IMG/VR virus record: IMGVR_UViG_3300020215_000066
Location: 1-47,179 of that record
Origin: a virus
DNA: 47,179 bases
Strand: one strand, 5' to 3'
The translations under genes and the position numbers were made by a program. Within the stretch, counting starts at the first letter, position 1, and the number at the start of each line of letters is the position of its first letter. The notes under the pieces are model-generated. The model worked only from the letters and a program-made list of their open reading frames with translations. It ran no database searches and had not been told where the DNA came from. Shown here one piece after another: positions 6,233 to 44,582 of the stretch.

Positions 6233-6642
6233 CCGACACTCAGGAGAAGGTTCTGCGCTTTATCGCCGAGTTCTCCGCAGAACACGGCTACGCGCCGTCT
6301 TACCGCGAGATCATGGTGCACATGGGCTACACCTCGACCAACGGGGTGGCCTGTCACATCAAGTCGCTGCGCAAGAAAGGTTACTTGCAAGAGAAGCCAA
6401 AGCACACGGCCAGGAGCATGATCCCCACGAACCCAGGTCTTTCCAGGGCCGAGCGGGTGCTACTGGAGGTGCTGAAGCTCTGCGAGGACGGCAGACATGG
6501 TGAAGTGGGGGCTACTGTGAGGGGGTATTTCTCTGCCGGTCGCGTCTCTGCTGTTCCAGGTACAGACGCGCCAGGGCCTTCTCCCGAGGGGACATGTTCT
6601 GGATCTCTTCGGGGCGGAACGTCAGCAAGGGGAGCGTCCTGA
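6226..6642 (+). CDS. LexA N-terminal-type winged-helix regulator
   Basis: 138 aa. Residues 2-60 (LTDTQEKVLRFIAEF ... YAPSYREIMVHMGYTS ... VACHIKSLRKKGYL) closely follow the LexA DNA-binding domain. The peptidase half of LexA is absent, so this is a regulator of the phage short-LexA type and not a self-cleaving repressor. From about codon 96 the frame runs antisense into the end of the 957-aa gene, so its tail is low-complexity (SPEGTCSGSLRGG) and possibly non-functional. It sits at the end of the rightward operon, facing the late operon. Confidence 0.75.
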   Translation: MLTDTQEKVLRFIAEFSAEHGYAPSYREIMVHMGYTSTNGVACHIKSLRKKGYLQEKPKHTARSMIPTNPGLSRAERVLLEVLKLCEDGRHGEVGATVRGYFSAGRVSAVPGTDAPGPSPEGTCSGSLRGGTSARGAS

Positions 6643-9385
6643 CTCCCGGTGCTCCGCGCAGTTCGTCCATCATCCCTTCCCGGAGGGCGGCACGCTTGGA
6701 CTTGGCAATGTCCACGTCGCTGATCCGGGCTCCCGTGGTCAGGTTCAGGGCCGAGTCGAGCCAGCTCTTGCGCGGATCGGTCAGCGTTCCCGCCGTCGTC
6801 ACGACGCGCGAGAGGGGCGAGTTCATCAGGACGTTCTCGACCCCCGGAGACACCGGCACTCCCACCAGGTCCTCCAAACGCGAGTGCAGGTCGCGCAAGT
6901 CTCGACCGGAATAAAGCTGGCGGTTGGTCAGGCCCTCGACGACCATCTTCAGCATCGGGTTGGCGTTGCCGGCGAGCTTGGTCGGTGAGAACACATCGCC
7001 GATCTGCTCGAAGGGCAGACCGAGGCTGGTGAGATAACGTCTCTGGCCGTTTTGCTCCCCACCCAGGGGGATGGCGACACCGGGACTCAACCAGGGGGGC
7101 TCGAAGCCGCCATCTTCGCGTCCCTTTGCGGTCACTTTCACCGCTGTTCCGACCGCTCCTCCCGGGTTCTGCATGATCTGCTTGATGTTGTACGGCACGT
7201 TCGATCGTGCAAACCCGTAGAAGGGCACCAGGCGGCGCATCACTTCCTTCTCGAAGGAAGTCAGATTGTGGTAGTCCGCGTGCGCCGCCTTGACCATGGG
7301 AGCGACCATGTCCGGGTCAACGCCTTGCTTGAGAAGCGCCAGCGCCCCTCCGCCTCGCGCGGTCTGCTCGATGACGGTTGCGAGGTCTTCGCCGGCCTTG
7401 AACGGAGCGACGGTGCTCTTGGTGGCCCCGGCGACTCCGCGAATGTCCGTCTGCTTGAGCATGTCCTTGGAAGTTGGCAGGTAGTTCCTGCCGTACTCCC
7501 CGATGGCGGACAGACCGACCTTGCGGTCCTTCATGAGCCCGGGGATGCCTTCGAGGATGTCGGGGGCCACGTTCTTGCCGAGAACGTCCGAGACATGCCC
7601 CGAGCTGGTGAGCCCCTTGGAGAACAGCCAGTCTCCGATGGCGCGCGAGGCCGCTTCGTCGGTGAGTCCTGGGCCGACGATCTTCTGGACCGAGGGCCAT
7701 TGCGAGATCCCCTTGACCGACTCCCCGCGCAGGAGGTTGGTCATCATCTGGTTGCCTTCGAGCGCCGCCTTGGGAGAGCCCGTGAGGATCGACTGAATCC
7801 ACCCCAGGGAACTCGTGGCATTGCGGGCATGGAAGGCGGGGAAGGGGGTCGTCAGGAATCCCTTGGTCAGATTGGTGGGCACGTCGATAAGGCTTTTCAT
7901 GAGCCGGGTGAAGTCCGACTCGACCTTGTGCCCAGGATTCAGGATCGCCCCCAGCGCATTGGAGACAGCCTGGGGGACGTGCATCGTGTCGAAGAACGCA
8001 CGCTGCACGCCGGGGTTGTCGCCAGCGAGCTTGCCGGCCTTCTGTAGTGCCTCGAAGGCGCGTTCCGAGGCGTTCTTGGTCGCTTCGGTCGCCCCCTGTA
8101 CCACGTTGCCGAACTCGTCGATCTTGGGGCCGGACAGACCGAGTTTGCCCAGAAGTTCCTGCACCTTCATGGAGCCAGGGGACGCCGGGCCGGCGTGCTC
8201 CGCGATCAGGTCGTATGCCTTGCGGACCATGTTGTTCTTGGAGACGTTTGACTGCATGTACCCCATGAAGTCTGTCAGGGGGTCGTTGGAGAACAAGCCG
8301 TGCTTCAGTCGCTCGGGGTGCAAACCGTACAGGAACGACGCCAGGGCGTCCGCGTCTTGAGGGGAGACGTGGTAGTTCTGAACGAGGTGCTGAGCCGCCG
8401 CGAAGTTGTCAGGTGCCGTCCGCTTGGACGTTCCGACAAAGGCGTCCTTCACCATGTTGTTCAGGCGATCGGTGGATGCATAGCGCAGGATCTGCTCTCG
8501 GCTTGAGGACGGCGTGGAGAAGAAGTCCGCCGCCACGTCCAGGGTCGGCTCCGTCACCTGCCGTGGGAAGAAGTTTTCCAAAGGCTCCTTGGGCCTTCCC
8601 AGGAACTGTGCCTCCTCGAGCACGTCCTTGAGGGACTTCTGGGCGAACTCCGATCCCTGCCGCGCCCCCTGTCCGACGCCTGTTGCCGCTTCTCCCAGTT
8701 CGGTGAAGTTGCGCAGCCCCTGCCTCTGAGCGGCATCCAGGGCATCATCCCCCATGGTGCGAACCAGCTGGGCGGCAGTCAGCGCCCCCGCCTCCTGCCC
8801 GGCGATCTTCTCCGGGTAGAGCGTTCGCGCGATCGTTTGCCCCATGGTGTCGTACTGGCCCATGACTTCGGGCTTGAACGCTCCCGCCAGCAGGCGTCCA
8901 CCTGCGTCCATCGCCTTGCCGCCCAGTTCGCGTGTGGCAGCGATGGGCGGGCCGATGACGGGTATGTGGCTCGCCACGTCGGCGACCTTCCCCACTCCCT
9001 TCCCCGTGGCCTTCAGTCCCGCCCCCACCCCTCTCGCGATGGCCCCACCAAACCATGTCGTCGGGTCCGTGAGCAATTCCACCCCCAGCCCCGTCAGCCC
9101 CTCTCCCGAGAACAAGGAGGCATCCCGGCTCCCCCCGATCAGCTCCGAGCCGGTGACGCGCTGGGAGGGGTCCAGGATGCCCCCGAATGCCCGTCCGGGA
9201 TCACCGTGGAACAAGCCCCGGACGATGCTGCCGGGAGTGTCCAGGACGTTGCCCAGGAAGGAAAGCCCGGACAGTCCGGCGTTGAGCACGGAGCCGGCGA
9301 GGGAGCGTTCTTCTTCGGGAGGGAGTTGGGGGAGGAGGTCGGAAGCGGTTGGGAGAAGGTTCCCGTTGATGTCATAGCGTGGCAT
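6512..9385 (-). CDS. Large polyvalent/ejection-type virion protein
   Basis: 957 aa. Residues about 708-731 (LTSFEKEVMRRLVPFYGFAR followed by SNVP) match a signature of large phage polyvalent and ejected proteins. Alternating Gly/Ala-rich amphipathic segments fit a protein carried in the capsid. Residues 46-84 (DTPGSIVRGLFHGDPGRAFG, then GILDPSQRVTGSELIG) recur near the N-terminus of the 540-aa protein at 25958-27580. The position at the end of the late operon, after two Gln/Ala-rich proteins, resembles internal core proteins of podoviruses. Enzymatic function is not evident. Its last 131 bases are antisense to the LexA-type gene. Confidence 0.75.
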   Translation of the reverse strand: MPRYDINGNLLPTASDLLPQLPPEEERSLAGSVLNAGLSGLSFLGNVLDTPGSIVRGLFHGDPGRAFGGILDPSQRVTGSELIGGSRDASLFSGEGLTGLGVELLTDPTTWFGGAIARGVGAGLKATGKGVGKVADVASHIPVIGPPIAATRELGGKAMDAGGRLLAGAFKPEVMGQYDTMGQTIARTLYPEKIAGQEAGALTAAQLVRTMGDDALDAAQRQGLRNFTELGEAATGVGQGARQGSEFAQKSLKDVLEEAQFLGRPKEPLENFFPRQVTEPTLDVAADFFSTPSSSREQILRYASTDRLNNMVKDAFVGTSKRTAPDNFAAAQHLVQNYHVSPQDADALASFLYGLHPERLKHGLFSNDPLTDFMGYMQSNVSKNNMVRKAYDLIAEHAGPASPGSMKVQELLGKLGLSGPKIDEFGNVVQGATEATKNASERAFEALQKAGKLAGDNPGVQRAFFDTMHVPQAVSNALGAILNPGHKVESDFTRLMKSLIDVPTNLTKGFLTTPFPAFHARNATSSLGWIQSILTGSPKAALEGNQMMTNLLRGESVKGISQWPSVQKIVGPGLTDEAASRAIGDWLFSKGLTSSGHVSDVLGKNVAPDILEGIPGLMKDRKVGLSAIGEYGRNYLPTSKDMLKQTDIRGVAGATKSTVAPFKAGEDLATVIEQTARGGGALALLKQGVDPDMVAPMVKAAHADYHNLTSFEKEVMRRLVPFYGFARSNVPYNIKQIMQNPGGAVGTAVKVTAKGREDGGFEPPWLSPGVAIPLGGEQNGQRRYLTSLGLPFEQIGDVFSPTKLAGNANPMLKMVVEGLTNRQLYSGRDLRDLHSRLEDLVGVPVSPGVENVLMNSPLSRVVTTAGTLTDPRKSWLDSALNLTTGARISDVDIAKSKRAALREGMMDELRGAPGVRTLPLLTFRPEEIQNMSPREKALARLYLEQQRRDRQRNTPSQ

Positions 9386-25806: not shown

Positions 25807-25961
25807 TCCGTCTCCTTGATCTCCTTGGCCTCCTGCACCTGGGGCAGTGGCCCCAGCACCATGCTTTGCCAGGGCGTTCTCTGATCTTGCGGCACATCTT
25901 CGCGCGGCACCGTCCTATCGAGGCTTGCGCCACAGCGCGGGCAGATGCGCGGATCGCTCAT
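25803..25961 (-). CDS. Small zinc-knuckle protein
   Basis: 52 aa with a single CPRCGAS knuckle at the N-terminus and a helical acidic end (AKEIKETE). ATGA overlaps at both ends. Its size and coupling resemble other micro-genes of this operon. Function unknown. Confidence 0.55.
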   Translation of the reverse strand: MSDPRICPRCGASLDRTVPREDVPQDQRTPWQSMVLGPLPQVQEAKEIKETE

Positions 25962-27580
25962 GCCTGCTCTCCCGCGAGGATGGCGAGAAGCGGGGGCAGG
26001 GCCATGAGCGGCTGACCCTTGTGCAGCACGGCTTGCTTCAAGGCGTCGTTGAGGACGATGCCGGGGCGCATCTTGGGTTGGATGCCCATCGCTTCGGCTA
26101 TGTCGGAAACCTTGCTGATGGGGATGTTCTCGACCTGAGCGCCCCACTGCTTCGCGTACTTGTTGAGCCAGTTGGGGAGCACCACGTCGTAAAACTGCTG
26201 CTGGCCCGCCAGTTCTCCACCCACTTGCTTCTGGATGGCCTTGCCGGTGTTCCAGGTCATCGCATCGTAGCCGCCCTCGGCTGCTTCGCGGAGAGCACGC
26301 TTCATGGCGAGTTCGTGCCAGTTTTCCTTGAAGGGGGCGTTGGGAACTGGCGTCGTATTCATGACGCCTTCGAGATTCTTCATCTCTTCCATGATCGTTC
26401 GGCTTTTCTCCCAGATGGGAAGATCGGCAGCGTCTTCAGGCCCGTACCGCATCAGCCGGGCTAGTTTCTCTGCGCCACCCGGCTCGGACGTTTGCAGGTT
26501 GAAGAGGGCGTCTTCCAATTCGGAGTATCGCTTCGCTGCGTCGGCACGCGCGGCGTCAGCCTGGGGCGTCCTGTACCCGCTCTTTTTGCCCGTCTGATGC
26601 CAGTCCGATTGCACTTCCTCGATGTGGAGGATCTTCCTGCCGCCCGGACCAACGCGGTCCTGCATTCGGACGTGAGCGAGGATGTTTGGTTCGTCGAAGT
26701 GTGGAGAACGGTAATAGCCTTCCGGCGCGTTGATTTGCTTGCCCTTGAGGTCAAGGTATCGAAGCTGTTCGTCCGGTGTTAGTTTGCCTCCGTTGGCGTT
26801 GGCTTTTGTGACCAGTTTTTCCAACTCGCCAGCGGAATCGCTCTTGGTCAGCAGAAGTTCGCGGTAGTTGTCTCCACCCTTGGTCTGGTAGCTGCTATAC
26901 TTCGCGCCTGTAGCCTGTCGAAAAGGCTCGTCCCAAGTAGGAACTTCTCCAGGTGTCTTCCATATCTCTCCCACGCCGATCTTGTTCTCTTCCAGGTGCT
27001 TCAGCAGTTCCGGCTTTGTGACTCTACGCCCCGGCTGCGCCAGTTCGGCAAGATTGCGAAACTCCGCTTCCTCCTGAGAGAAGCCGCCCTGTTTCTTCAG
27101 GACGTTCATCAAGGACTCGCCCTTGACCGATTCCGGCATCTTGGCCGCAGCTTGTTCCAGCCGTGAGTAGAACGTCGGAGCCAACTCCGGGGCCTCGATC
27201 GCCTTGACCAGTGCCGGCGCTTCGACCGCCGCTTTCACTTCGGGGGCCGCTTGCAAGGTCCGCAAGAGCGCAGGGGCCTCTTCCGCCGCGCGCACTGCTG
27301 GCGCAGCTTCAGCCACAGCTCGCCCACCCCTGAGCAGCTTCAACCCTCCCAGGCCCGACAAGAGCATGAGAGGGTCCGTCGCCAGAGACGCGCCGATCCC
27401 CAGGATCTCGTTGCCGACCCCCTCTTCCAGCCCAAGCATCTCCCGTCCCGAGACACGCTGCGAAGGGTCCAGGATGCCTCCGAAGGCTCGGCCCGGGTCG
27501 CCTGCGATCAGCCCCCGGACCACCGAGCCCGGCGTGTCCACAACGTCGCCAACCCCTTGAAGAATGTCGAGTAGGTTCAT
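25958..27580 (-). CDS. Polyvalent-type virion protein
   Basis: 540 aa from the ATG at 27580, which has GAGGG upstream and lies just after the previous stop. Residues 11-50 repeat the N-terminal module of the 957-aa protein (DTPGSVVRGLIAGDPGRAFG, GILDPSQRVSG). A Gly/Ala-rich hydrophobic stretch follows. The C-terminal ~300 residues carry a domain I recognise from phage and plasmid polyvalent proteins: 'HVRMQDRVGPGGRKILHIEE', 'VQSDWHQTGKKSGYR', 'APFKENWHELAMKRALREAA', 'LPNWLNKYAKQWGAQVENI'. Its activity is unknown; ejection into the host with the DNA is inferred. Confidence 0.75.
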   Translation of the reverse strand: MNLLDILQGVGDVVDTPGSVVRGLIAGDPGRAFGGILDPSQRVSGREMLGLEEGVGNEILGIGASLATDPLMLLSGLGGLKLLRGGRAVAEAAPAVRAAEEAPALLRTLQAAPEVKAAVEAPALVKAIEAPELAPTFYSRLEQAAAKMPESVKGESLMNVLKKQGGFSQEEAEFRNLAELAQPGRRVTKPELLKHLEENKIGVGEIWKTPGEVPTWDEPFRQATGAKYSSYQTKGGDNYRELLLTKSDSAGELEKLVTKANANGGKLTPDEQLRYLDLKGKQINAPEGYYRSPHFDEPNILAHVRMQDRVGPGGRKILHIEEVQSDWHQTGKKSGYRTPQADAARADAAKRYSELEDALFNLQTSEPGGAEKLARLMRYGPEDAADLPIWEKSRTIMEEMKNLEGVMNTTPVPNAPFKENWHELAMKRALREAAEGGYDAMTWNTGKAIQKQVGGELAGQQQFYDVVLPNWLNKYAKQWGAQVENIPISKVSDIAEAMGIQPKMRPGIVLNDALKQAVLHKGQPLMALPPLLAILAGEQA

Positions 27581-27587
27581 GCTGCCC

Positions 27588-28142
27588 TCATTCCACAGGA
27601 AGATGTAGTCTGGCGCGAAAATCGTTGATGACGCTCTCATTCTCCTTCAGGGCAACAGGCTCTACCATCGCCCATTCCTTTGATCCGAGCGTGTTCAAAA
27701 CTTCGATCACTTGAAAGCCGTGTGTCAGACAGAATACAGCACCACCTTCAATGAACGGACCATCCAGGCTTTCTCTGTCGAGTTTCTTAAGCACTACCGT
27801 TGCCAGTGTGTGCCGCTTCGCCTTCACTTCACATCCCGGAAAGCTGCATTTGACTTCTTCCAGAAGTGGCTTGTAATACTCTGTGGCTGTCAGCAGTATC
27901 TTCGTCTCCCTGCCAGTAAGTGACTTGTCCACCGCCACACCAAACCCAGCCACACAGAGAGTCGCAGAGGGCACTGGCGGTTTGCTGAACAATGACGGAT
28001 TGACCAATTTCAGAGCTTCGAGCGAGTCCATTAGCTCTTGGCTTACTCCGATAACCACCGCTTCTCCGGGGTGCTTTGCCAAAGGCTCTGGTTTTGTCGC
28101 GTTGTTCGCCTGATGAAGCACTGCTATTGGGTTGGTGATCAT
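27588..28142 (-). CDS. Hypothetical protein with possible zinc site
   Basis: 184 aa, coupled to the portal gene by ATGA. 'CSFPGCEVKAKRHT' and 'FCLTHGFQ' could form a C2-CH zinc site. It uses more A/T-ending codons than the flanking late genes, so it may be a recent insertion. Not recognised. Confidence 0.6.
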   Translation of the reverse strand: MITNPIAVLHQANNATKPEPLAKHPGEAVVIGVSQELMDSLEALKLVNPSLFSKPPVPSATLCVAGFGVAVDKSLTGRETKILLTATEYYKPLLEEVKCSFPGCEVKAKRHTLATVVLKKLDRESLDGPFIEGGAVFCLTHGFQVIEVLNTLGSKEWAMVEPVALKENESVINDFRARLHLPVE

Positions 28143-32973: not shown

Positions 32974-33073
32974 AGACCACGCTCCGTGGCTGCCAGGAGC
33001 CGATGTACGCGCACCAGTAGGGGCGGGCGCTGAAGTGGAAGCTGAACGCCGGGCCATTCCAGGTCACGATCAT
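32966..33073 (-). CDS. Tiny aromatic-rich peptide
   Basis: 35 aa, aromatic (VTWNGPAFSFHFSARPYWCA). AAGGAAAG precedes the ATG, and both ends overlap neighbours (ATGA at the start, 8 nt at the end). Similar short 'WNGPAFSFHF'-like peptides occur in phage late regions, but I cannot name a family. Confidence 0.55.
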   Translation of the reverse strand: MIVTWNGPAFSFHFSARPYWCAYIGSWQPRSVVYA

Positions 33074-33168
33074 GTCTTTCCTTTCCAGTCCCAGAACAAG
33101 TCCCAGATCACCAGGGGAACCCAGATCGGGGACAGCAGCAGCAAAAGGAGCAGCTTCAGGTACATCAT
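33070..33168 (-). CDS. Tiny single-pass membrane peptide
   Basis: 32 aa. One Leu-rich transmembrane segment (LKLLLLLLLSPIWVPLVIW) is followed by a charged end (DWKGKT). It is coupled by short overlaps on both sides. The composition fits a small holin or antiholin, but a leader or toxin-like peptide is possible. Confidence 0.55.
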   Translation of the reverse strand: MMYLKLLLLLLLSPIWVPLVIWDLFWDWKGKT

Positions 33169-33293
33169 GTGTTCTTCCACCAGTCCGCAGGATCGGGCTC
33201 CTCGACCGGAGGTTGTCTGCACAGATCGCACAAGGCCCATGTCACCAGCATGGCCGCAGCGCCGAACACGAAGCCGCCGATGAACTCGATCAC
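33165..33293 (-). CDS. Small membrane protein
   Basis: 42 aa from GTG, overlapping the previous stop (GTGA). One transmembrane segment (FIGGFVFGAAAMLVTWAL) is followed by CDLC and an acidic tail (VEEPDPADW). A CxxC beside the membrane could bind metal or form a disulphide. Possible lysis-cassette member. Confidence 0.55.
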   Translation of the reverse strand: MIEFIGGFVFGAAAMLVTWALCDLCRQPPVEEPDPADWWKNT

Positions 33294-33506: not shown

Positions 33507-34388
33507 TCACTTGGGAATGCAGTTGAAGCCATCGGCCATGATCTTCGTGATCTTGCCGTCAATCTCGAACATGATCACCTTGCGCCCCGATGGAGGGGGT
33601 GGGGCCGTCGGCGGAACCGGAGGCGGTTGTGCTCCGGCTGCGCCATAGAGCGATTGAATCCTTGGGATGTCGTCGGCTTGCTGGGGGGCCGAAACCATCT
33701 CGTTGTAGAAGGGGGCCATGAGCGCCGAGTTGACCCTGGAGTGGTCAAGACCCAAGAGATGACCAAACTCGTGCGTGGCCACGTTCAGAAGGCGGATGCC
33801 GCTGCCGGTCTTCACCCACGTCTCATCCAGGTCGAACCGCATGAGGAGTTGCGAATCGCTCCCGGTCGGCAGGTAGGCCCACGCCAGGGTGCCGGAGGGT
33901 CCGTCGAATCCCTGAGCGCGTCCGCGACCCACGGAGATGATGATGTCGGGCGTCCCTGCGGCGATGCGTTCGATCGTGAAGTTGGCGACGTTCTCCCACT
34001 GCTGCCAGGCGAACTCGATGATGTCGTCCTGCTCCGATTGCGGCAGGCCCGACACATACCCCTGGACAGCGTAGGTCAGCTTGTTCTTGCGCCACTTGGC
34101 TTCCAGGACGTTCAAGGGTGCGCAGTGAACCACGTCCAGGCAGCCGCAGCGCTTGCGTGCGATCAGTTCGCGAGTCGGCTCATCCAGAAACCCGGTCGGA
34201 GGCAATCCACCAGCGGATTGCAACTCCGACAGGGCCTGGGCAAACAGGGCCACGGTCTGACTCTCCGAGAGAGAGCCAGCCAGGATATTTCCCGCCAGGT
34301 AGCCGTAGTGCTCCAGGTAGGCTTTCACCTCCTGGGTCGTGGACTCACCTGCGCCCGTGGACTCGATGACTGCGTGCCAGTTGGACAT
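33507..34388 (-). CDS. Matrixin-type zinc metalloprotease
   Basis: 293 aa. HEFGHLLGLDH (206-216) is the metzincin HExxHxxGxxH zinc site, and 'SALMAPFY' around Met224 is the Met-turn. The N-terminal ~75 residues (EVKAYLEHYGYLAG ... TGFLDEPTRELI) resemble a peptidoglycan-binding-like domain. 'RKRCGCLDV' (79-86) sits where matrixins have the PRCGxPD cysteine switch, so the enzyme may be made as an inactive zymogen. No signal peptide is obvious. A Pro-rich linker (PPPVPPTAPPPPSG) leads to a short C-terminal domain. It may act on host envelope protein during lysis or entry. Confidence 0.85.
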   Translation of the reverse strand: MSNWHAVIESTGAGESTTQEVKAYLEHYGYLAGNILAGSLSESQTVALFAQALSELQSAGGLPPTGFLDEPTRELIARKRCGCLDVVHCAPLNVLEAKWRKNKLTYAVQGYVSGLPQSEQDDIIEFAWQQWENVANFTIERIAAGTPDIIISVGRGRAQGFDGPSGTLAWAYLPTGSDSQLLMRFDLDETWVKTGSGIRLLNVATHEFGHLLGLDHSRVNSALMAPFYNEMVSAPQQADDIPRIQSLYGAAGAQPPPVPPTAPPPPSGRKVIMFEIDGKITKIMADGFNCIPK

Positions 34389-34390
34389 CG

Positions 34391-34699
34391 TTACCTCGCG
34401 CGGACACGGACCTTCACGTTCGCACGCACAGCGCGCTGCACCTTCACGCGCTGCTGCTTGACCACCACCCGCTGACGCACAGCCTTCACACGCTGCACGC
34501 GAACGGCAGCGACATGCTGCACGGCGATCTGCTGCACGGCGCACGAGTGGCAATCCACCACAGGAGCCACGACAACCGGGACGGCTGTCACGGGCACGAA
34601 CGGGGTCACGATGCGAGCACGCACCGAGACGATGTGAGTGGCATGGCTGACGCCGGTGAGCGTCAGTGCCGCCAGAGCTGCGAGAATGAACCTCTTCAT
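34391..34699 (-). CDS. Secreted V/R/Q-rich cationic protein
   Basis: 102 aa. Signal peptide (MKRFILAALAALTLTGVSHA) followed by a Val/Arg/Gln-rich basic chain (VQRVKAVRQRVVVKQQRVKV) with one CxxC (DCHSC). It has AAGGAGG before the ATG and resembles low-complexity secreted proteins I associate with Gemmata-like planctomycetes. It could be a periplasmic cationic protein or a host-derived accessory gene. Confidence 0.7.
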   Translation of the reverse strand: MKRFILAALAALTLTGVSHATHIVSVRARIVTPFVPVTAVPVVVAPVVDCHSCAVQQIAVQHVAAVRVQRVKAVRQRVVVKQQRVKVQRAVRANVKVRVRAR

Positions 34700-34721
34700 G
34701 TATCCTCCTTCGGGTTAAACA

Positions 34722-35216
34722 TCACTTGAGCGAATCGAGCCAGGACTGTATCGCTCCCACTTCCTCATCCGTCAGCGGACCACCCTTGGGCATCGAGCCC
34801 AGGAATGTCTTGGTCCCGACGTACAGCGCCTGCTTGTAGTTGAGCGGGGCGATCTTACCCCCATCCAGGAGGACAAAGCCTCCACCCTTCGCCGCCACCG
34901 CCTTCTCATGGCACAACGCGCACTTGGCCTGGAACAGCTTGAGCACGTCGATACCATTGGCCTTTGCTTTTGGCTCCGGCGCTTCCGACTTCTGAGTCAG
35001 CGCCTCGATCAGCATGTCCACCTTCTTTTCCAGCTTCTCCAGCCGGTCATCACCGTGCGCCAGCGTCACCGAATAAGTCGGGATTTGCACAGGCACGGCG
35101 ACCAGGGCGGCAACATGGTGGTTGACCACGGCAACACGCTGCCGACGCACAACGCGGCAATCCGCGCTGGCGAGTCCGGTGGCCAGGAGCAGCACGCTAA
35201 TTCCGATGATCTTCAT
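34722..35216 (-). CDS. Secreted c-type cytochrome-like protein
   Basis: 164 aa. Signal peptide (ISVLLLATGLASADC), then a V/R-rich linker with the feel of the neighbouring 102-aa protein, a short coiled segment (DRLEKLEKKVDMLIEALTQK) and a cytochrome c domain. CALCH (99-103) binds haem covalently and Met142 in 'GSMPKGG' is the expected distal ligand. The end 'PLTDEEVGAIQSWLDSL' is typical of class I cytochromes c. It would be exported and matured by the host Ccm/Ccs system and act as an electron carrier. This is very unusual in a phage. Confidence 0.85.
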   Translation of the reverse strand: MKIIGISVLLLATGLASADCRVVRRQRVAVVNHHVAALVAVPVQIPTYSVTLAHGDDRLEKLEKKVDMLIEALTQKSEAPEPKAKANGIDVLKLFQAKCALCHEKAVAAKGGGFVLLDGGKIAPLNYKQALYVGTKTFLGSMPKGGPLTDEEVGAIQSWLDSLK

Positions 35217-35310
35217 GGCACTCTCCCATGTACTTCAGCAGTTCGGCGATCGAGAAGATGAGGACCACGGCAAACCCACCCCACAGCACATGCGTCAGGA
35301 TGCCGCTCAC
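35197..35310 (-). CDS. Tiny membrane peptide between the two cytochromes
   Basis: 37 aa from GTG overlapping the stop of the 454-aa gene (GTGA), and running 20 nt into the cytochrome gene. One transmembrane segment (VLWGGFAVVLIFSIAELL). It could anchor or insert near the secreted haem proteins, or be a holin-like peptide. Confidence 0.5.
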   Translation of the reverse strand: MSGILTHVLWGGFAVVLIFSIAELLKYMGECHEDHRN

Positions 35311-36671
35311 TTCACGATCTCTCGCGCCAGAACATGCGCCTCTTCCCACTGACGAATCCCGATCGTTCGCGCCCTGCGTCCTTCCAGGAGGAACGCGGAC
35401 AGCACCGAGTCCAGCTGGTTCGTCGCCTGGAGGTAGGTGCCCAGCTTTCGCTGGAACACCTTCACGTCGATCCCCAGATCCAGGGCGGCGTACTCCGCGT
35501 CCACTCGTGCGTCCTCGTAGCGCTCCCAATACTCCGCGTACTTGGTCGCGTAGACCTCCGCCTTCCATCCCGTCGCTTCCAGGACCGCCACGGCATGACC
35601 CAGCTTGTCCTTCTCGATGAACGGCTCCAGTTTGCGCAGGTACTGCTGTCTCAGTTCGCGCAAGACCTTGTAGTCGGGGGACTGTAGCGCCAAGGGGGGT
35701 GAGATGAGGTTCCTGATCCAGCCGTCGATCGGCTGAATCCCTGCATCGGCATGGCACCGTATACAGGACACGTTGATGTGGACCCGGTGATCGTTGGACT
35801 TCGACCTGTTATCCGAGGCCGCGAAGTCGGGGGCCGTGACCTGCCTTTCCCCCTTGTTGTTGCCCAGATACCACGCCCACATACCGTTGGGCAGATGGCC
35901 GAACTGCTCCGTCGCCACGTCGTTCACGTCGGCCTTGCGAAACTCCCGGTCCAGATCCCTCCCCAGGACGCGAAGAGGGTTCAGCTTGTCCACCGCCTTG
36001 CGGAAGTCGTAGGTGAGCCACAGCGCCCCATCCTCCGCCGTCTCACGCACGATGCCCCTCGCCCTCCCAGGAGAGACGCCGGATTCCGCCACGGCTTCCC
36101 GCAGTTCCACCTTGCGGCGTTTGCGCTTGGAGTCGTAACCCACCAGGGCATGGAAGGTCTTCTCGTCCTTGATCCCCAGGAAGTCGTAGTAGTTGGGGTC
36201 GCGGCCCTCGCCGGCTGTCGTCTGGTTGAAGAACCAGTCCATCCGCAAGATCGGGGCCTGGCTCTGGGTCAGGTACACCAGTTCGTAGATGCCCTTGCCC
36301 ATCCATGGGGCCTGAGCGGTGCGCTTGAACTTCTTGCCCCGCAGTTGCAGTTCGACCCGGACGTGATACCAGGGGTCCGCATTCGCCAGCCGCTCGTAAA
36401 CCTCCCTGTCCCAGCCGTAGTCGTCCAGGTTCACCCGGAACAGCCCCGGCGCAACCCGCGCCGGCAGGGTGATGTCGGTTTCCTTCGAGAGTCCCGTCAC
36501 ATGCCCGGAGAGAACCTTGGGGTCGTCCTCCTTCGCGTGGGGGCCGGCGACTAAGTAGCGCACGAGCACCTGCTGCTCGGGGGCCAGCTTGCGCACGTCC
36601 ACGAGCGCGGCGTCCACGAGGTCGGACTGGCCGAGCAAGAGGAAACAAAGAGCCGACACGCGCTCGATCAT
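35307..36671 (-). CDS. Planctomycete-like c-type cytochrome domain protein
   Basis: 454 aa. The N-terminus (MIERVSALCFLLLGQSDLVDA) looks like a signal peptide. The long middle has charged and aromatic strands. 'LPNGMWAWYLGNNKGER' (260-276) followed by 'HINVSCIRCHADAGIQPIDG', with haem motif CIRCH (303-307), reproduces a domain arrangement I know from planctomycete cytochromes (LPNGLxGYxLxxxxGxR ... SCxxCH). A helical C-terminal segment follows. Substrate and partner are unknown. GGAGG lies 9 nt upstream, with an ATGA overlap to the previous gene. Confidence 0.8.
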   Translation of the reverse strand: MIERVSALCFLLLGQSDLVDAALVDVRKLAPEQQVLVRYLVAGPHAKEDDPKVLSGHVTGLSKETDITLPARVAPGLFRVNLDDYGWDREVYERLANADPWYHVRVELQLRGKKFKRTAQAPWMGKGIYELVYLTQSQAPILRMDWFFNQTTAGEGRDPNYYDFLGIKDEKTFHALVGYDSKRKRRKVELREAVAESGVSPGRARGIVRETAEDGALWLTYDFRKAVDKLNPLRVLGRDLDREFRKADVNDVATEQFGHLPNGMWAWYLGNNKGERQVTAPDFAASDNRSKSNDHRVHINVSCIRCHADAGIQPIDGWIRNLISPPLALQSPDYKVLRELRQQYLRKLEPFIEKDKLGHAVAVLEATGWKAEVYATKYAEYWERYEDARVDAEYAALDLGIDVKVFQRKLGTYLQATNQLDSVLSAFLLEGRRARTIGIRQWEEAHVLAREIVK

Positions 36672-37066
36672 TCCGTGTCCACCTCCGGCCTCTTGTTCTT
36701 GGCGATCATGTCGATCTCGCGAAACGTCAGCAGCTTTTCGATCTTGAGGTTCATCGTCTGCATCGAGTTCAAGGTCTGATGGTGCGACTGGTGGACGTAG
36801 TCATCGAGCTTGCCGACGCGGTTCACGATGTCGGTGCGCAGGTCGTGGATGTCGCGATCCATCTTGTTCTCCAGGGCGGTGATGTCGCTTTTGAGTTCGC
36901 CGACCGACCTCTCCAGTTCCTCGCGCGTGACAAACTCCTTGTTGGGGTCCGTCTGTTTGAAGAACAGCTTCTGGATCGCCACAGCGATGCCGCAGATGCT
37001 ACCGACCATGGAGATGAAAAACGCCATGCCGATCGCGAACATGCCGACAACGCCGATGTTTTCCAT
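36668..37066 (-). CDS. Membrane-anchored coiled-coil protein
   Basis: 132 aa. A transmembrane segment (GMFAIGMAFFISMVGSICGI) near the N-terminus is followed by a long heptad region (ELERSVGELKSDITALENKM ... LRTDIVNRVGKLDDYV). This is the layout of i-spanins and of several other phage membrane proteins, so it could span the envelope. The start lies in the TGATG overlap; a GTG at 37069 is possible. Confidence 0.65.
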   Translation of the reverse strand: MENIGVVGMFAIGMAFFISMVGSICGIAVAIQKLFFKQTDPNKEFVTREELERSVGELKSDITALENKMDRDIHDLRTDIVNRVGKLDDYVHQSHHQTLNSMQTMNLKIEKLLTFREIDMIAKNKRPEVDTE

Positions 37067-37263
37067 CACCTTCCCCTCAGCGGTAAACCGAGTTCATCAA
37101 GCCACGCGACCGGGGGTTGCAGGTTCGCCTTTCTGTATCGAGCAACCGCATCCATCAGGTCTTGGTGCCTCTGGAGCAACATCCACAAGGGGAACTCCGC
37201 TTCCTTCCAATCGCGGAGCCACCAGCGGTAACGGATCACACCTTTGGGCATTTGCCATCTCAT
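37066..37263 (-). CDS. Small hypothetical protein
   Basis: 65 aa, basic and Trp-rich at the start (GVIRYRWWLRDWKEAEFPLW), helical at the end. Coupled by ATGA/TGATG overlaps to the glycosyltransferase and the membrane coiled-coil gene. Not recognised. Confidence 0.6.
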   Translation of the reverse strand: MRWQMPKGVIRYRWWLRDWKEAEFPLWMLLQRHQDLMDAVARYRKANLQPPVAWLDELGLPLRGR

Positions 37264-38192
37264 GCCACGAGGTTGTTGCCGTCCGGGTTCACGAACAGGA
37301 TGCGCGACTGCGACTCGATGCCTCGATCCTCCGCAGCCTTGTACCGTTCGTTGATCGCGTCGGTGTAGATCGGGCGCGGGCGTCCCACGAGCTTCGGCTT
37401 GTAGTGCCCGGCCCAGCAGTTCCAGGCGCAGTGCAACGGGTTGTAGCCGCGCAGTTTCTGCACCACCATGCCCATGTCGCGCGTGGCCACCACGTCTTCG
37501 GTCGAATGCTTCTCCGCCTCGTAGATGTTGCCGTACTCGTAGGAGAACCACGAACTCGTCAGCGCCTTGGCTTCCCGATCGCTCTTGCCCTGGTCCTTGA
37601 GCCGCTTGAACGTGTGGACCGGATCGGTGATGTCGAAGACTTCCATGTCGAACATGATGAGGCCGGTGGGCAGGGCGGCGCACTCCCCGATCCCGGCCAT
37701 GCGCGATGCCTCCTCGCGCTCGTACATCTTCAGTTCCATGTCCTGATCGCCCGGATGGTCGGACTCCTTGTTGCACCACTGGAAGACGTAGCAGCACTCG
37801 ATCGGCGGCGGGCCACAGTAGGGCGCGCCGATCACCGAAGGCCGGCCTGCCATCCGGCGCTTGTAGATGAAGTCGAAGGCCGTCTCGAAGAAGGGGGTCG
37901 CGTCCTTGTCCACCCCGAGATACAGGTCCGGGTGCATGTCCGAATCGACCATCACCAGAACGTCCGCCCCATGCTTGCGGGCGTCCAGGACCGCCTTGTT
38001 GCGCGTCATGGTGATAGGGGTATCTACGTAGTCTTGTGACAGGACGCCGCTGATCCGCTCGTCGCTCACCGCCGCCTGGATCGCCTTGGCGTACCAGTGG
38101 CGGATGGCAGGGACTTCGGACGAAGTGCCTCCGTTGCCACCATAGGGGAACGAAGTGAACATCACCTTGAGTTTTGCTGGGATCATCGACAC
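37260..38192 (-). CDS. GT-A glycosyltransferase
   Basis: 310 aa. The N-terminus 'LKVMFTSFPYGG' and 'VLSQDYVDTPITMTRNKAV' lead to 'ADVLVMVDSDMHPDLYLG', whose DSD motif is the metal/nucleotide-sugar site of GT-A enzymes. 'GRPSVIGAPY' and 'ALPTGLIMFDMEVF' follow as usual in this type. The acceptor is unknown: it could be a capsid or tail protein, DNA, or a host glycan. Paired with the FkbM-type methyltransferase upstream, which suggests sugar methylation. Confidence 0.8.
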   Translation of the reverse strand: MSMIPAKLKVMFTSFPYGGNGGTSSEVPAIRHWYAKAIQAAVSDERISGVLSQDYVDTPITMTRNKAVLDARKHGADVLVMVDSDMHPDLYLGVDKDATPFFETAFDFIYKRRMAGRPSVIGAPYCGPPPIECCYVFQWCNKESDHPGDQDMELKMYEREEASRMAGIGECAALPTGLIMFDMEVFDITDPVHTFKRLKDQGKSDREAKALTSSWFSYEYGNIYEAEKHSTEDVVATRDMGMVVQKLRGYNPLHCAWNCWAGHYKPKLVGRPRPIYTDAINERYKAAEDRGIESQSRILFVNPDGNNLVA

Positions 38193-38201
38193 CTCGGGGG
38201 T

Positions 38202-38915
38202 TTAGCGTTTCGCCCAGAACAGGATGTTTCGGGCGTCACTCATGGGCAGACTGAACACGTCCTTGAAGCCCTCGTCGTACAGGAAGTCTCCAAGCTCCTG
38301 CATGTCGCAGCGTTGGAAGCGCGGCACGCGGACCAGATTCGCCATCTGTTCGATCGTGTGCATCTCGCCGCAGATTTCCTCGACCCGGTCGAGCATCGTG
38401 CAGGTTCCCAGGGCGGGGAACTCCGCGCCCTCCGCGTCGATCTTCAGCAGGCGGATTCTGCCGTTGGTCTGGCAGGCTTTCTCGATCACCTCGTCCAGAC
38501 CGATCGTGTCCACCGGAATCCGCTTGTTCATCCCTCCCACCACCACCCCAGGCACACACGACCCACACGCCGTCGCGTGGTCGGGATACCCCGTGAACGT
38601 GACGGGCTCCTTGCAGTCCGACCGCCACACCGCCTTGCGCGACAGGTGGACCCCAAGGGAGTAGGTGGACAGGTTCTTTTGCAGGTAAGAGAAGTTTTCC
38701 TCGTCCGGCTCGTAACACCAGACCTCCCCACAACCACGCGCCAGACACGCCAGGGCGAAAGAGCCGATGTGTGCCCCGACATCCACGATCACGTCGGACT
38801 TCGAGAAGCGCGGCGGCAGATCGTAGGCGTTCTGGGAGAGCGTTTCGCGCACCGCCACTTCATCGAGGGTGCCGAAGCGCATCAGAAAGGACAGAGTTGG
38901 TTTGGCCGCGATCAT
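38202..38915 (-). CDS. FkbM-family methyltransferase
   Basis: 237 aa from the ATG at 38915. 'VIVDVGAHIGSFALACLARG' is the SAM-binding motif I, 'CYEPDEENFSYLQKN' is the acidic-loop region and 'RIRLLKIDAEGAEFPAL' is the FkbM hallmark. These enzymes O-methylate sugars or other small substrates. Its neighbour is a GT-A glycosyltransferase, so a glycan-modification role is likely. Weak ribosome site after a terminator-like hairpin. Confidence 0.8.
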   Translation of the reverse strand: MIAAKPTLSFLMRFGTLDEVAVRETLSQNAYDLPPRFSKSDVIVDVGAHIGSFALACLARGCGEVWCYEPDEENFSYLQKNLSTYSLGVHLSRKAVWRSDCKEPVTFTGYPDHATACGSCVPGVVVGGMNKRIPVDTIGLDEVIEKACQTNGRIRLLKIDAEGAEFPALGTCTMLDRVEEICGEMHTIEQMANLVRVPRFQRCDMQELGDFLYDEGFKDVFSLPMSDARNILFWAKR

Positions 38916-38940
38916 GTAACACCAGGGGGTTAGAAATGCC

Positions 38941-38958
38941 CCCACCCCGAAGGGTGGG
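38941..38958 (-). terminator. UUCG-tetraloop hairpin after the capsid genes
   Basis: Read leftward, CCCACCC-TTCG-GGGTGGG is a perfect 7-bp stem with a UUCG tetraloop, followed by GGCATTTCT. It lies in the 64-base gap between the capsid accessory gene and the methyltransferase. It probably lowers expression downstream of the abundant capsid mRNA. Confidence 0.6.
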
Positions 38959-39641: not shown

Positions 39642-40748
39642 TCAGGTGACCTTGGCCAGTTTCAGCAGGTTGCGGATGCCACCCCGTTCGTTGCCGAACT
39701 TGAGGTTGCCGAAGAAGTCCACCGTGACGCGGTAGGTCTGCTCATCGACCTTCGTGTCCTGCGCCGTCACGAACATGCGGTCCTGCATGCACAGCAGCTC
39801 CACGATGTCGAACGACCAGCCGAAGCCCTGACCGTTGCCGTTGGAGTCCACGGGAACCCCGTACTCCCAGCCGACCTCGGTGCCGTCGAAGAAGATCACG
39901 TCCTTGAAGCCCAGACGGTAGGGAGCCGAGTCGCCGGCCCCGCGCGTCACGTTGATCTGCTCCTCGGCCTGCACCTTGTCCTTGAACTGCCGGAACATTT
40001 GCAGGTCGAGCGTGATGAGGTCGAGCATCGCGCCGTTCTTCTGGACGGCCATGATGCCGGCTCGCATCGCTTCCAGACAGGTGTTGGGCCACGTCTTCGT
40101 CGAGGCGGTCCAGGCCGTGTCCGAGTAGTCGATGACCACCGGAGTCCAGAAGTCGTAGGTCGTGTCGCCCGTCCCCGCCAAAGGCCAGCTGTCCGCCGAC
40201 CACGAGCCACCGTAGTTGCCCAGCGTCGTCGAGAGGCCGGCGTAGGTGTCGTTGTTGATGCCGACGAAGCCAGCCGTCGCGCCACCGGAAACCGAGGTGA
40301 ACGAGTTGAACCCGTGCAGGGTCGATTCGTTGCCCGAGGCGTTGCCATCGACGTAGAGCTGTTCGGCGAAACTCGTCTCCATGTCGTAAGCCAGGCTCTG
40401 CGCCATCTGCTTCACGACGCGAACGATGGCCTGTGGGCCGTCGTTCTTGAGCTGTTCCATCTTGCCGATGGCGTCCGACGTGCCGAATGCACGCCAGTCC
40501 AGAGTTGCGGTCTTCCAGCGGTCCTGCTGGGAGATCGAGCCGAAGCCCATCCCGTCCGACAGGCCCACGGTCGGAGCCTGACGGTACTTGACGCGCCAGA
40601 CCAGATCCGTGCCGTGCTGGTTGTAGAGGATCTTGCCCTTGTCCATCAGCATGGCAAGGACGATCCGACGCCGAAGAGTCGCGTCTTCGACGGTCTTGAA
40701 ATAGTTGCTGATGGTCGTGTTGGCTTCACGACTCCAGGAACTTGCCAT
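39642..40748 (-). CDS. Major capsid protein
   Basis: 368 aa, the usual size. HK97-type features in order: an N-terminal helix (SREANTTISNYFKTVEDATL), a beta/E-loop-like region (VGLSDGMGFGSISQQDRWKT), a spine helix (AIVRVVKQMAQSLAYDMETS) and P/A-domain strands (AEEQINVTRGAGDSAPYRLG). The C-terminal 'CMQDRMFVTAQDTKVDEQTY' and 'GNLKFGNERGGIRNLLKLAK' match phage capsid families. The scaffold gene upstream and accessory gene downstream support the call. Confidence 0.85.
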   Translation of the reverse strand: MASSWSREANTTISNYFKTVEDATLRRRIVLAMLMDKGKILYNQHGTDLVWRVKYRQAPTVGLSDGMGFGSISQQDRWKTATLDWRAFGTSDAIGKMEQLKNDGPQAIVRVVKQMAQSLAYDMETSFAEQLYVDGNASGNESTLHGFNSFTSVSGGATAGFVGINNDTYAGLSTTLGNYGGSWSADSWPLAGTGDTTYDFWTPVVIDYSDTAWTASTKTWPNTCLEAMRAGIMAVQKNGAMLDLITLDLQMFRQFKDKVQAEEQINVTRGAGDSAPYRLGFKDVIFFDGTEVGWEYGVPVDSNGNGQGFGWSFDIVELLCMQDRMFVTAQDTKVDEQTYRVTVDFFGNLKFGNERGGIRNLLKLAKVT

Positions 40749-42719: not shown

Positions 42720-44582
42720 ATGCGATCGCCAAGCGAGATGGACATACTTCAGGTGGACATCGGGAACAAGTGCTTCCTGCGGTGCAGTAATTGCACTCGC
42801 GCGATCTCTCACCAGTCGAAGTATTGGGAAATGGACATTCCCACCTTCGAGCGTGCCATCAAGTCGCTTGAAGGATGGAACAGACCGGGCCGCATCGTCG
42901 GTATCATCTCAGGCGAGCCAACGCTCAACAGTAACTTTGAGGAGTTGTCGTGGAAGTTCGCTGAACTATGGGGCGGACCACTGACGAAGAATGCCATCCA
43001 TCCAATCCGTGACTTCAATGCATGGGCCATGGAACGTCTCTTCGATCGGTCGAACGGCCGCGGCCTGTGGACCAGTTTCGGCGCAGGGTTTTACAAACAC
43101 TTTCAGACCATCGCGTCCGTCTACAGTCACCTCAACCCGAATGACCACTCTCAATGCGGTCGGCATCAGGCCATGTTCATCACTCGCAAGGAATACTGCG
43201 AGGCGACGGGCATGTCCGATGAACAGTGGGAAGAGAACACTCGAAACTGCTTTGTCCAAAATTTGTGGAGCGGGACGACAAACGACAAGGGGAGCTACCC
43301 GTGCGAGGTCATGGCCGTCATTGACCGGTTGTACTTCGATGGCTCCCATGCGTGGCCTACCGAGCCAGGATGGTGGCAGCGAAAACCGGAAGATTTCGGG
43401 TCCATGCTGGACCTGTGCAACTACTGCTCGCTGGCTCAGCCTGGCCCGTCGCAGGTCGATAGCGCGGATCGTGATCAGCTCAGCCAGCTCAGCGTCGATC
43501 GGCTACGGGAAGCAGGATCACCGGCAGTGAAGTACGAGAAGTATGATCTCGTCACTCCCGAGATGATCAAAGAATCTCGTCTCGTGACCACGCGCGACTC
43601 CTACGTCTCCGAATCCGGCATCCGCGTCTCCCCCCTCAACACTTCCATCAGACCCCAGAAGGTGACGCTGGTGGTGGTGTGTGTGGGGAGAAGCGCTCAC
43701 CTTACCAAGACGCTGCTTCACAATCTGCTCTTGGTTGACGAAGGCATCGTCGTGACTGATAACGCTGATCGGTTGCAACGAGACATCTCCGACGACTACA
43801 GCCATCTGGGGTTTCGGATCATCACCGCCGACCCCCACGCCAACGGCCACGCCTTCAACAAGGGAGCCATGTTGAACGCCGGCCTGGCCCAGATCAAGAA
43901 CCCCGACTGGATCATCCTCTCCGACGCCGACGTGTTCCTGTCCCACGACCTGCGCCGGTTCACCAAGAGCCACACCCTGAACCCTGGAGTCCTCTACGGG
44001 GTCAAGCGCTTCGACATCCCCATGAGGCAGCAGGACGAGATGATCGAGGCGTTTTTGGAGCAAGGGACGTGGTTCTCGGGACTCACCCAGTCCGACCCTG
44101 CGGTGGACAACGACATCAACGGCTTCTTCATGATGTTCAACCGCCGTGCCGCCGCGATCCGCGACAAGTGGCCCAAGGTGCTGAGCGAGGAGTTCTGTTC
44201 GGCGGGAGGGGTGGACACGCATTTCGTCAACCAGTTCCCCCCGGAAAAGCGTCTGATCCTGGGAGGTCTGGCCGTGGCCCACATCGCCCATGGACCCTTC
44301 GGGGATGGGTGGAACGGGTCAGGTGGTCAGGGGGGTGACCACCTGACCTGGAAGCAGTACGGGATGATGACCACCGAAGGGAAAATGGTCAAGATCACCG
44401 ACCTGCCCTTGCCCTGCAAACTCCGCTTCGTCTCCACCGAAAACGAGAAAGTGGCCGAGGTGGAGGTGCGTTCGGCTGCCGACGCCATCCCAGAAGAGAT
44501 TGTTTCCGTCAGGGGAGGGCGGCTGTACTTCCTGGGGGAAGAGGCGGGATCGCACCTGCATGTGAGCTACAAGGAGATGTGA
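42720..44582 (+). CDS. Radical SAM - glycosyltransferase fusion protein
   Basis: 620 aa. The N-terminal half has the radical SAM cluster motif with Cys18, Cys22 and Cys25 (CFLRCSNC) and 'SGEPTLN' (64-70), the motif that contacts SAM. Further cysteines around 195-236 (YPCEVMAV, CNYC) may hold a second cluster. From about 314 a GT2-type GT-A domain begins (VTLVVVCVGRSAHLTKTLL ... 'DWIILSDADVF' with DAD 402-404, 'DNDINGFFMMF', 'GGVDTHF'). It is preceded by a short linker and ends in a beta tail. A fused enzyme could modify and glycosylate the same substrate. GAGGG before the ATG. Confidence 0.8.
   Translation: MRSPSEMDILQVDIGNKCFLRCSNCTRAISHQSKYWEMDIPTFERAIKSLEGWNRPGRIVGIISGEPTLNSNFEELSWKFAELWGGPLTKNAIHPIRDFNAWAMERLFDRSNGRGLWTSFGAGFYKHFQTIASVYSHLNPNDHSQCGRHQAMFITRKEYCEATGMSDEQWEENTRNCFVQNLWSGTTNDKGSYPCEVMAVIDRLYFDGSHAWPTEPGWWQRKPEDFGSMLDLCNYCSLAQPGPSQVDSADRDQLSQLSVDRLREAGSPAVKYEKYDLVTPEMIKESRLVTTRDSYVSESGIRVSPLNTSIRPQKVTLVVVCVGRSAHLTKTLLHNLLLVDEGIVVTDNADRLQRDISDDYSHLGFRIITADPHANGHAFNKGAMLNAGLAQIKNPDWIILSDADVFLSHDLRRFTKSHTLNPGVLYGVKRFDIPMRQQDEMIEAFLEQGTWFSGLTQSDPAVDNDINGFFMMFNRRAAAIRDKWPKVLSEEFCSAGGVDTHFVNQFPPEKRLILGGLAVAHIAHGPFGDGWNGSGGQGGDHLTWKQYGMMTTEGKMVKITDLPLPCKLRFVSTENEKVAEVEVRSAADAIPEEIVSVRGGRLYFLGEEAGSHLHVSYKEM

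What the first reader, a model, noticed from the sequence alone, without database searches (positions are those of the whole stretch)
34391..36671. Two secreted c-type cytochrome-like proteins inside a phage late operon
The 164-aa protein has a signal peptide, CALCH and a distal-Met region. The 454-aa protein has a signal-like start, 'LPNGMWAWYLGNNKGER' and CIRCH. They are separated by one tiny membrane ORF and followed by a secreted V/R-rich protein. All lie between capsid and terminase genes on the same strand. Phage-encoded c-type cytochromes are very rare. Possible roles: keeping electron flow in the periplasm during infection, an envelope-associated virion component, or a superinfection-related function.
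Basis: partly seen in the sequence, partly recalled or inferred. Interest (0 to 1): 0.9.

Follow-up and report, generated by a model that had tools for sequence, protein, structure and literature searches.

The report
Phage cassette: protease plus two cytochromes
Viruses of planctomycete bacteria repeatedly carry a small set of genes for two haem proteins and a protein-cutting enzyme, probably used to break out through the host's protein-rich cell wall, and no such phage module appears in the databases and papers searched here.

Summary
The 164-aa protein is a class I cytochrome c (CALCH, distal Met, PF13442). The 454-aa protein is an unclassified haem-c protein whose CIRCH is conserved in all 64 relatives examined. 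Both sit in an overlapping late operon together with a secreted V/R-rich protein, a membrane/coiled-coil protein and a full pro-matrix-metalloprotease (M10 with cysteine switch).

The large/small cytochrome pair recurs in ten other viral contigs, including prophages of Gemmataceae, and in phage-like elements of other Planctomycetia. A protease lies beside it in most loci, but of different families: M10, astacin, subtilase, kumamolisin or papain. Nearly all these proteases lack a signal peptide. Cellular relatives fuse both haem domains in one chain; phage versions are split, and the tree separates the two groups with 100/100 support.

Best explanation: an egress (lysis) cassette for planctomycete envelopes. 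A signal-less protease would replace the usual endolysin, and an exported split di-haem unit would do redox chemistry on the disulfide-rich protein wall or on the protease. The cassette, its conservation and the protease swapping are shown. The egress role is inferred (about 0.45), and the exact redox step is a guess. Misassembly is excluded by the independent loci.

The parts
36668..37066 (-). 132-aa protein: N-terminal TM segment plus long coiled coil (holin/spanin-like), ATGA overlap with the large cytochrome
   Evidence: similar TM/coiled-coil genes precede the cassette in L004, L116 and the other Planctomycetia elements. Weak PHROG hits only.
35307..36671 (-). Large c-type cytochrome, 454 aa, one haem site CIRCH
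   Evidence: No Pfam/PHROG/NCBIfam/PDB sequence match. Relatives in phages with invariant CxxCH. AF2 pLDDT 84.8, pTM 0.85. Best structural matches are cytochromes c'-beta 7ead Z 5.6 and 7s5o Z 5.0, next 3.7.
35751..35765 (-). CIRCH haem-c attachment motif of the large cytochrome
   Evidence: Sequence; conserved 64/64.
35197..35310 (-). 37-aa one-TM ORF overlapping both cytochrome genes
   Evidence: small one-TM ORFs also occur beside the cytochromes in L109 and L050.
34722..35216 (-). Small class I cytochrome c, 164 aa, signal peptide, CALCH, distal Met
   Evidence: PF13442 27.3 bits, cut-off 27. In 10 of 10 related virus records exactly one PF13442 match, at the small-cytochrome gene.
34908..34922 (-). 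CALCH haem-c attachment motif of the small cytochrome
   Evidence: Sequence; CxxCH 23/23, distal MP in 22 of 23.
34391..34699 (-). Secreted V/R/Q-rich protein, 102 aa
   Evidence: Signal-like N-terminus; V/Q-rich counterparts follow the small cytochrome in L004, L109, L050, L110, L112, L113, L094.
33507..34388 (-). Matrixin (M10) zymogen, 293 aa: propeptide, cysteine switch KRCGCLD, HEFGHLLGLDH, no signal peptide
   Evidence: PF00413 2.3e-35; aligns over propeptide and catalytic domain with human pro-stromelysin-2, 7.1e-39; no N-terminal hydrophobic segment.
33070..33180 (-). 36-aa one-TM ORF downstream of the protease, possible further membrane component
   Evidence: membership in the cassette not established.

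Best explanation
This is a late-expressed egress (lysis) cassette suited to planctomycete hosts. A protease without a signal peptide (here an MMP-like zymogen) would accumulate in the cytoplasm like a classical endolysin and be released by a small membrane protein, then cut the protein-rich wall. The two cytochromes and the V/R-rich protein are exported. The small one (His/Met class I haem) would exchange electrons with the large one (a beta-sheet, c'-beta-like haem that probably binds a ligand or substrate), so together they form a split di-haem oxidoreductase acting on the disulfide-rich envelope or on the protease. Shown: operon, haem motifs, conservation, recurrence, protease swapping, split-versus-fused relation. 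Inferred: late timing, interaction of the two cytochromes, export, egress role. Guess: the exact redox reaction.
For: The operon overlaps and lies between capsid and TerL. The large+small pair recurs in eleven virus records including the window. Proteases of at least five unrelated families sit beside it: M10 (window, L004, L048, L050, L109, L110, L115), M12A astacin (L111, L112; L116 matches myroilysin 4.2e-18), S8 (L092 by Pfam; others by motif), S53 (L113, kumamolisin 1.4e-42), C1 (L097). Of 22 proteases examined, 18 have no N-terminal hydrophobic segment, 3 have a TM anchor and 1 a signal peptide, while all 16 large cytochromes checked have a hydrophobic N-terminus. Two large related contigs show no peptidoglycan-hydrolase family among the families listed. 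All complete cellular homologues carry an N-terminal CxxCH domain fused to the large domain, a Rosetta-stone link. The tree separates split (29) from fused (35) with 100/100 support. A planctomycete envelope has been described as proline- and cysteine-rich protein stabilised by disulfides (PMC3035269), with Cys-rich YTV wall proteins including in Gemmataceae (PMC8567305).
Against: No activity has been measured, and no adjacent gene is a confirmed holin. Planctomycetes also have peptidoglycan (PMC4432640, listed). One window virion-like protein (25958-27640) has a PHROG 'endolysin' segment at 1.5e-12. In L117 no protease was recognised, and the neighbours in L100, L101 and L002 could not be confirmed as proteases (L101 and L002 tested). 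The cassette occurs without visible phage genes in L048, L097 and L102. Class I cytochrome potentials are usually too high to reduce disulfides (general knowledge), so oxidation or peroxidase chemistry would be more natural.
Confidence: 0.45

Rival explanations
1. Auxiliary redox or stress module: the di-haem pair keeps periplasmic electron flow going or removes NO or peroxide during infection, and the protease is a separate neighbour.
For: Fused homologues are common cellular proteins (62 of 95 Gemmataceae genomes). The nearest folds, cytochromes c'-beta, bind NO and one has peroxidase-like activity. Phage genes for redox metabolism are a known kind (PMC8190135, listed).
Against: The protease neighbour persists while its family changes. 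No oxidase, reductase or dehydrogenase gene is seen beside it. Late-operon position. Phage versions form a separate clade, not recent copies of host genes.
Confidence: 0.25
2. Envelope-associated virion components: cytochromes, V/R-rich protein and protease are packaged or surface-bound and act at entry.
For: Genes lie among structural genes.
Against: Cytochromes and V/R-rich protein have export-type N-termini while capsid proteins assemble in the cytoplasm. The same cassette is found in phages with different head and tail genes.
Confidence: 0.1
3. Superinfection exclusion or lysogenic conversion that alters the host surface.
For: Present in prophages and in phage-like elements at what looks like a fixed chromosomal site; found without visible phage genes in L048, L097, L102.
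Against: In the window it is inside the structural operon; the proteases lack signal peptides, so most would stay inside the cell until release.
Confidence: 0.15
4. Artefact: host DNA joined by misassembly, or chance CxxCH motifs.
For: None found.
Against: Same module in independent contigs and isolate prophages; uniform GC 0.60-0.65; gene overlaps; CxxCH 64/64 and 23/23.
Confidence: 0.01

Closest known systems
Class I cytochrome c / Cytochrome_CBB3 (PF13442)
   Same: CxxCH, distal Met, size of domain, export signal; over the Pfam cut-off
   Different: Long V-rich N-terminal extension; neighbour of the large protein in a phage operon; haem binding not measured
Cytochrome c'-beta / cytochrome P460 superfamily (7ead, 7s5o)
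   Same: Only solved folds standing out for the large protein (Z 5.6 and 5.0, next 3.7), aligned over residues 166-318 and 167-350, which include the CxxCH
   Different: Low Z; no Pfam or sequence match; not reproduced with the isolated domain; roughly 150 extra N-terminal and 130 extra C-terminal residues
Cellular di-haem proteins (WD40-like C-terminal regions in those read) of Gemmataceae, other Planctomycetota, Verrucomicrobiota and Myxococcota
   Same: Same large CxxCH domain, plus a small cytochrome domain
   Different: Both haem domains in one chain; phage forms are split into two genes and form a separate clade
Matrix metalloprotease zymogens (human pro-stromelysin-1/-2)
   Same: Propeptide, cysteine switch and catalytic zinc motif align end to end
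   Different: No signal peptide, no hemopexin domain, phage-encoded; replaced by unrelated proteases in sister loci
Holin-endolysin-spanin lysis cassettes of tailed phages
   Same: Small TM/coiled-coil genes, an exchangeable signal-less hydrolase, late position
   Different: Proteases instead of peptidoglycan hydrolases, and two exported cytochromes; activity untested
Phage auxiliary metabolic genes for redox (for example sox/dsr phages, PMC8190135)
   Same: Phage-borne redox proteins
   Different: Not single host-like metabolic genes but a conserved multi-gene late cassette with a protease

Membership tests
Class I c-type cytochrome (164 aa) | CxxCH haem attachment motif | tested here: met
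   CALCH; 23/23 relatives
Class I c-type cytochrome (164 aa) | Distal Met ligand | tested here: met
   GSMPKG; MP in 22 of 23 relatives, KMGK in L116
Class I c-type cytochrome (164 aa) | Profile match over curated cut-off | tested here: met
   PF13442 27.3 bits, cut-off 27
Class I c-type cytochrome (164 aa) | Covalently bound haem and redox activity | not testable with these tools
   Needs protein
Cytochrome c'-beta / P460 superfamily (454 aa) | Beta-sheet fold ending in CxxCH | tested here: inconclusive
   Top two VIA-align hits in the full model, not found with the weaker isolated-domain model
Cytochrome c'-beta / P460 superfamily (454 aa) | Sequence profile match (Pfam) | tested here: inconclusive
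   No cytochrome P460 family listed for 15 members; the superfamily itself has very low sequence similarity
Cytochrome c'-beta / P460 superfamily (454 aa) | Five-coordinate haem with distal cap residue | not testable with these tools
   AF2 model has no haem
M10 matrixin with cysteine switch (MMP-type) | HExxHxxGxxH zinc motif | tested here: met
   HEFGHLLGLDH, PF00413 2.3e-35
M10 matrixin with cysteine switch (MMP-type) | Propeptide with PRCGxxD-type switch | tested here: met
   KRCGCLDV aligned with pro-stromelysin propeptide; switch-like Cys in 5 of 7 cassette M10s
Phage lysis cassette | Holin | tested here: inconclusive
   Small TM proteins adjacent, no holin family match
Phage lysis cassette | Peptidoglycan hydrolase | tested here: not met
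   None in the cassette; no such Pfam family among those listed for two large related contigs. It may therefore work like, but is not filed as, a classical lysis cassette
Phage lysis cassette | Causes host lysis | not testable with these tools
   Needs experiment
Auxiliary metabolic gene | Recently acquired copy of a host metabolic gene | tested here: not met
   Phage split forms lie on the opposite side of the tree from cellular fused forms, 100/100

The most novel reading that the evidence does not exclude
A phage lysis system that does not rely on peptidoglycan hydrolases: an interchangeable protease works with a phage-encoded split di-haem oxidoreductase that attacks or conditions the disulfide-cross-linked protein wall of planctomycetes (or redox-activates the protease zymogen).
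Probability: 0.3. Interest if true: 0.95.

Novelty: categorically new. Interest (0 to 1): 0.85.

Why it matters
How phages escape planctomycete cells, whose envelope has been described as a disulfide-stabilised protein layer, is not answered in anything found here. A conserved cassette with swapped proteases and an invariant pair of c-type cytochromes offers a concrete, testable candidate. It would be a phage module using haem redox chemistry late in infection, outside metabolic gene borrowing. It would also give a function to a large unannotated haem-c family (fused forms in 62 of 95 Gemmataceae genomes) and supply a marker for planctomycete phages and phage-like elements.

Tried and rejected
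Single-protein scans of viral contigs and the plasmid collection found nothing; alignments were needed. PDB sequence search with the large protein or its domain profile gave nothing or only CxxCH-driven matches. Foldseek gave no significant fold match for the large protein in PDB or viral models. The isolated domain (pLDDT 68) gave no haem protein, so the c'-beta similarity is kept as a lead only. Misassembly and chance motifs were rejected. A universal cysteine-switch activation role for the cytochromes was rejected: two M10s lack the switch, and S8, S53 and C1 proteases are not controlled by one (general knowledge), although oxidative activation of an MMP propeptide cysteine is documented (PMC3754950). 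The split form was not seen in a Verrucomicrobiota sample: 3 of 289 genomes matched at E <= 1e-40, all with open frames of about 800 aa or more. No phage cytochrome-protease cassette was found in the papers searched. One broad genome search of six genomes was uninformative.

Full report
What is in the window. The minus-strand late operon runs capsid (39642-40748), FkbM methyltransferase, a further ORF, then a compact block: membrane/coiled-coil protein (37066-36668), 454-aa CIRCH protein (36671-35307), 37-aa one-TM ORF (35310-35197), 164-aa CALCH protein (35216-34722), secreted V/R-rich protein (34699-34391) and a matrixin protease (34388-33507), followed by TerL (32249-30525) and a portal-like gene. 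Neighbours overlap by ATGA/GTGA or are a few bases apart. Only two CxxCH occur in the 57 called proteins (0.033 expected) and they are in these two genes. GC is uniform at 0.60-0.65. The window is a 47,179-base virus record classed as linear.

Nature of the two proteins. The 164-aa protein is a class I cytochrome c: signal-like N-terminus, CALCH, distal GSMPKG, PF13442 at 27.3 bits against a cut-off of 27. The 454-aa protein has no match in Pfam, PHROGs, NCBIfam or PDB sequences. Its CxxCH is conserved in all 64 family members extracted, itself included. AlphaFold2 with 15 sequences gave pLDDT 84.8, pTM 0.85. Foldseek finds nothing significant, but among 992 realigned chains the two best are beta-sheet cytochromes c' from Thermus (Z 5.6, rmsd 3.6, 99 aligned) and Nitrosomonas (Z 5.0, rmsd 4.0, 105 aligned); the next is 3.7. 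Both are haem-c proteins and the aligned ranges in our model include its CxxCH. The match was not reproduced with the isolated, poorer domain model, so it is a lead, not a classification. That superfamily binds NO or oxidises small substrates, and the Nitrosomonas member has peroxidase-like activity (PMC11928373).

The protease. The M10 gene downstream encodes a full zymogen: propeptide, cysteine switch KRCGCLD, HEFGHLLGLDH. It aligns over about 250 residues with human pro-stromelysin-2 (7.1e-39). It has no signal peptide.

Recurrence. Using alignments as queries: the 28.7-kb Limnoglobus roseus prophage record carries a TM/coiled-coil gene, M10, large (CVRCH), small (CASCH) and VQR-rich protein in overlapping order. 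A Gemmataceae provirus (L049/L109) has M10, a tiny TM ORF, large, small and VQ-rich protein; L050 in another Gemmataceae genome has the same. Eight more IMG/VR contigs (L110-L117) have large immediately or closely followed by small. In each of these ten virus records a PF13442 search hits exactly once, at the small gene. The huge phage LR756511 (595 kb) has two large-type genes with CxxCH. In other Planctomycetia, 14 loci carry stand-alone large genes; ten of them also show a TerL-type motif, and several show portal, prohead-protease-like and capsid-like genes by eye. The window's portal finds a 41% identical relative in one of 95 Gemmataceae genomes, which supports a planctomycete host for the window.

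Protease swapping. The gene beside the cytochromes is M10 in seven loci, an astacin-type M12A in three (L111, L112 by Pfam; L116 by myroilysin, 4.2e-18), a kumamolisin-type S53 in L113 (1.4e-42; L114 is similar by eye), a subtilase in L092 (Pfam) and in others by active-site motif, and a papain in L097. The neighbours in L100, L101 and L002 look like cysteine proteases to the eye but could not be confirmed (L101 and L002 tested); none was recognised at L117. Of 22 such proteins, 18 lack an N-terminal hydrophobic segment, 3 have a TM anchor and 1 a signal peptide, whereas all 16 large cytochromes checked start with a hydrophobic segment. Keeping a signal-less hydrolase while exchanging its fold is how endolysins behave in phage lysis cassettes (established knowledge).

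Split versus fused. In Gemmataceae genomes (62 of 95 have a match), and in Verrucomicrobiota and a myxobacterium, the large domain is preceded in the same chain by a second CxxCH domain; only one contig-edge fragment lacks it. Those read in full end in WD40-like repeats. All phage and element forms have a single CxxCH per chain. The tree (64 rows) puts 29 split forms on one side and 35 fused ones on the other with 100/100 support. Fusion in relatives is Rosetta-stone evidence that the two haem domains work together; it does not prove contact.

Why egress. [quoted passage not shown] cysteine-rich YTV proteins are found in wall preparations, Gemmataceae included (PMC8567305). In two large related contigs (53.6 and 72.7 kb) no peptidoglycan-hydrolase family appeared among the Pfam and PHROG families listed (the lists are truncated except for Pfam on the 72.7-kb contig). 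A protease plus exported redox proteins beside small membrane proteins fits breaching such a wall. Against it: planctomycetes also have peptidoglycan (PMC4432640, listed), a window virion-like protein has a PHROG endolysin segment, some loci show the cassette without visible phage genes (L048, L097, L102), and no lysis has been measured.

Limits. Genes were called with simple ORF and GC-codon rules, so some starts and small ORFs are approximate. Several viral contigs are fragments. The AF2 model contains no haem.

Verdict. The module is well supported as a conserved phage cassette; its egress role is the most likely reading (about 0.45) and the redox step is open.

Noticed in passing
L089, L091, L092, L094, L096, L099, L100 (non-Gemmataceae Planctomycetia): Phage-like elements (TerL, portal, capsid-like genes plus the cytochrome cassette) sit next to the same host genes (endonuclease/exonuclease/phosphatase protein and/or MogA) in several genomes, which suggests a fixed, vertically kept element: a domesticated prophage or gene-transfer-agent candidate.
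   Followed up: partly
L048:8485-11736; L097:7187-11485; L102:7553-11636: The cassette without visible phage structural genes; in L102 between a valyl-tRNA synthetase-like gene and folate/pantothenate genes.
   Followed up: no
window 6512-9385 and 25958-27640 (-): Two large predicted proteins share the N-terminal motif DTPGSVVRGL..GDPGRAFGGILDPSQRV; the second has a PHROG 'endolysin' segment (1.5e-12).
   Followed up: partly
window 37260-38192, 38202-38945 (-), 43527-44582 (+): An FkbM-type methyltransferase (38202-38945) and an ORF without family match (37260-38192) sit between capsid and cassette; a family-2-like glycosyltransferase lies on the plus strand.
   Followed up: no
L101:10713-11612 (-): A GH16 glycoside hydrolase gene inserted between the protease-position gene and the large cytochrome.
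   Followed up: no
L002 and L136 (LR756511.1, 595-kb phage): Two copies of the large haem gene in one huge phage; the small cytochrome was not found by the window query.
   Followed up: partly
Gemmataceae genomes, e.g. L051-L054: Unannotated di-haem proteins, many with WD40-like C-terminal regions, in 62 of 95 genomes of the family.
   Followed up: partly
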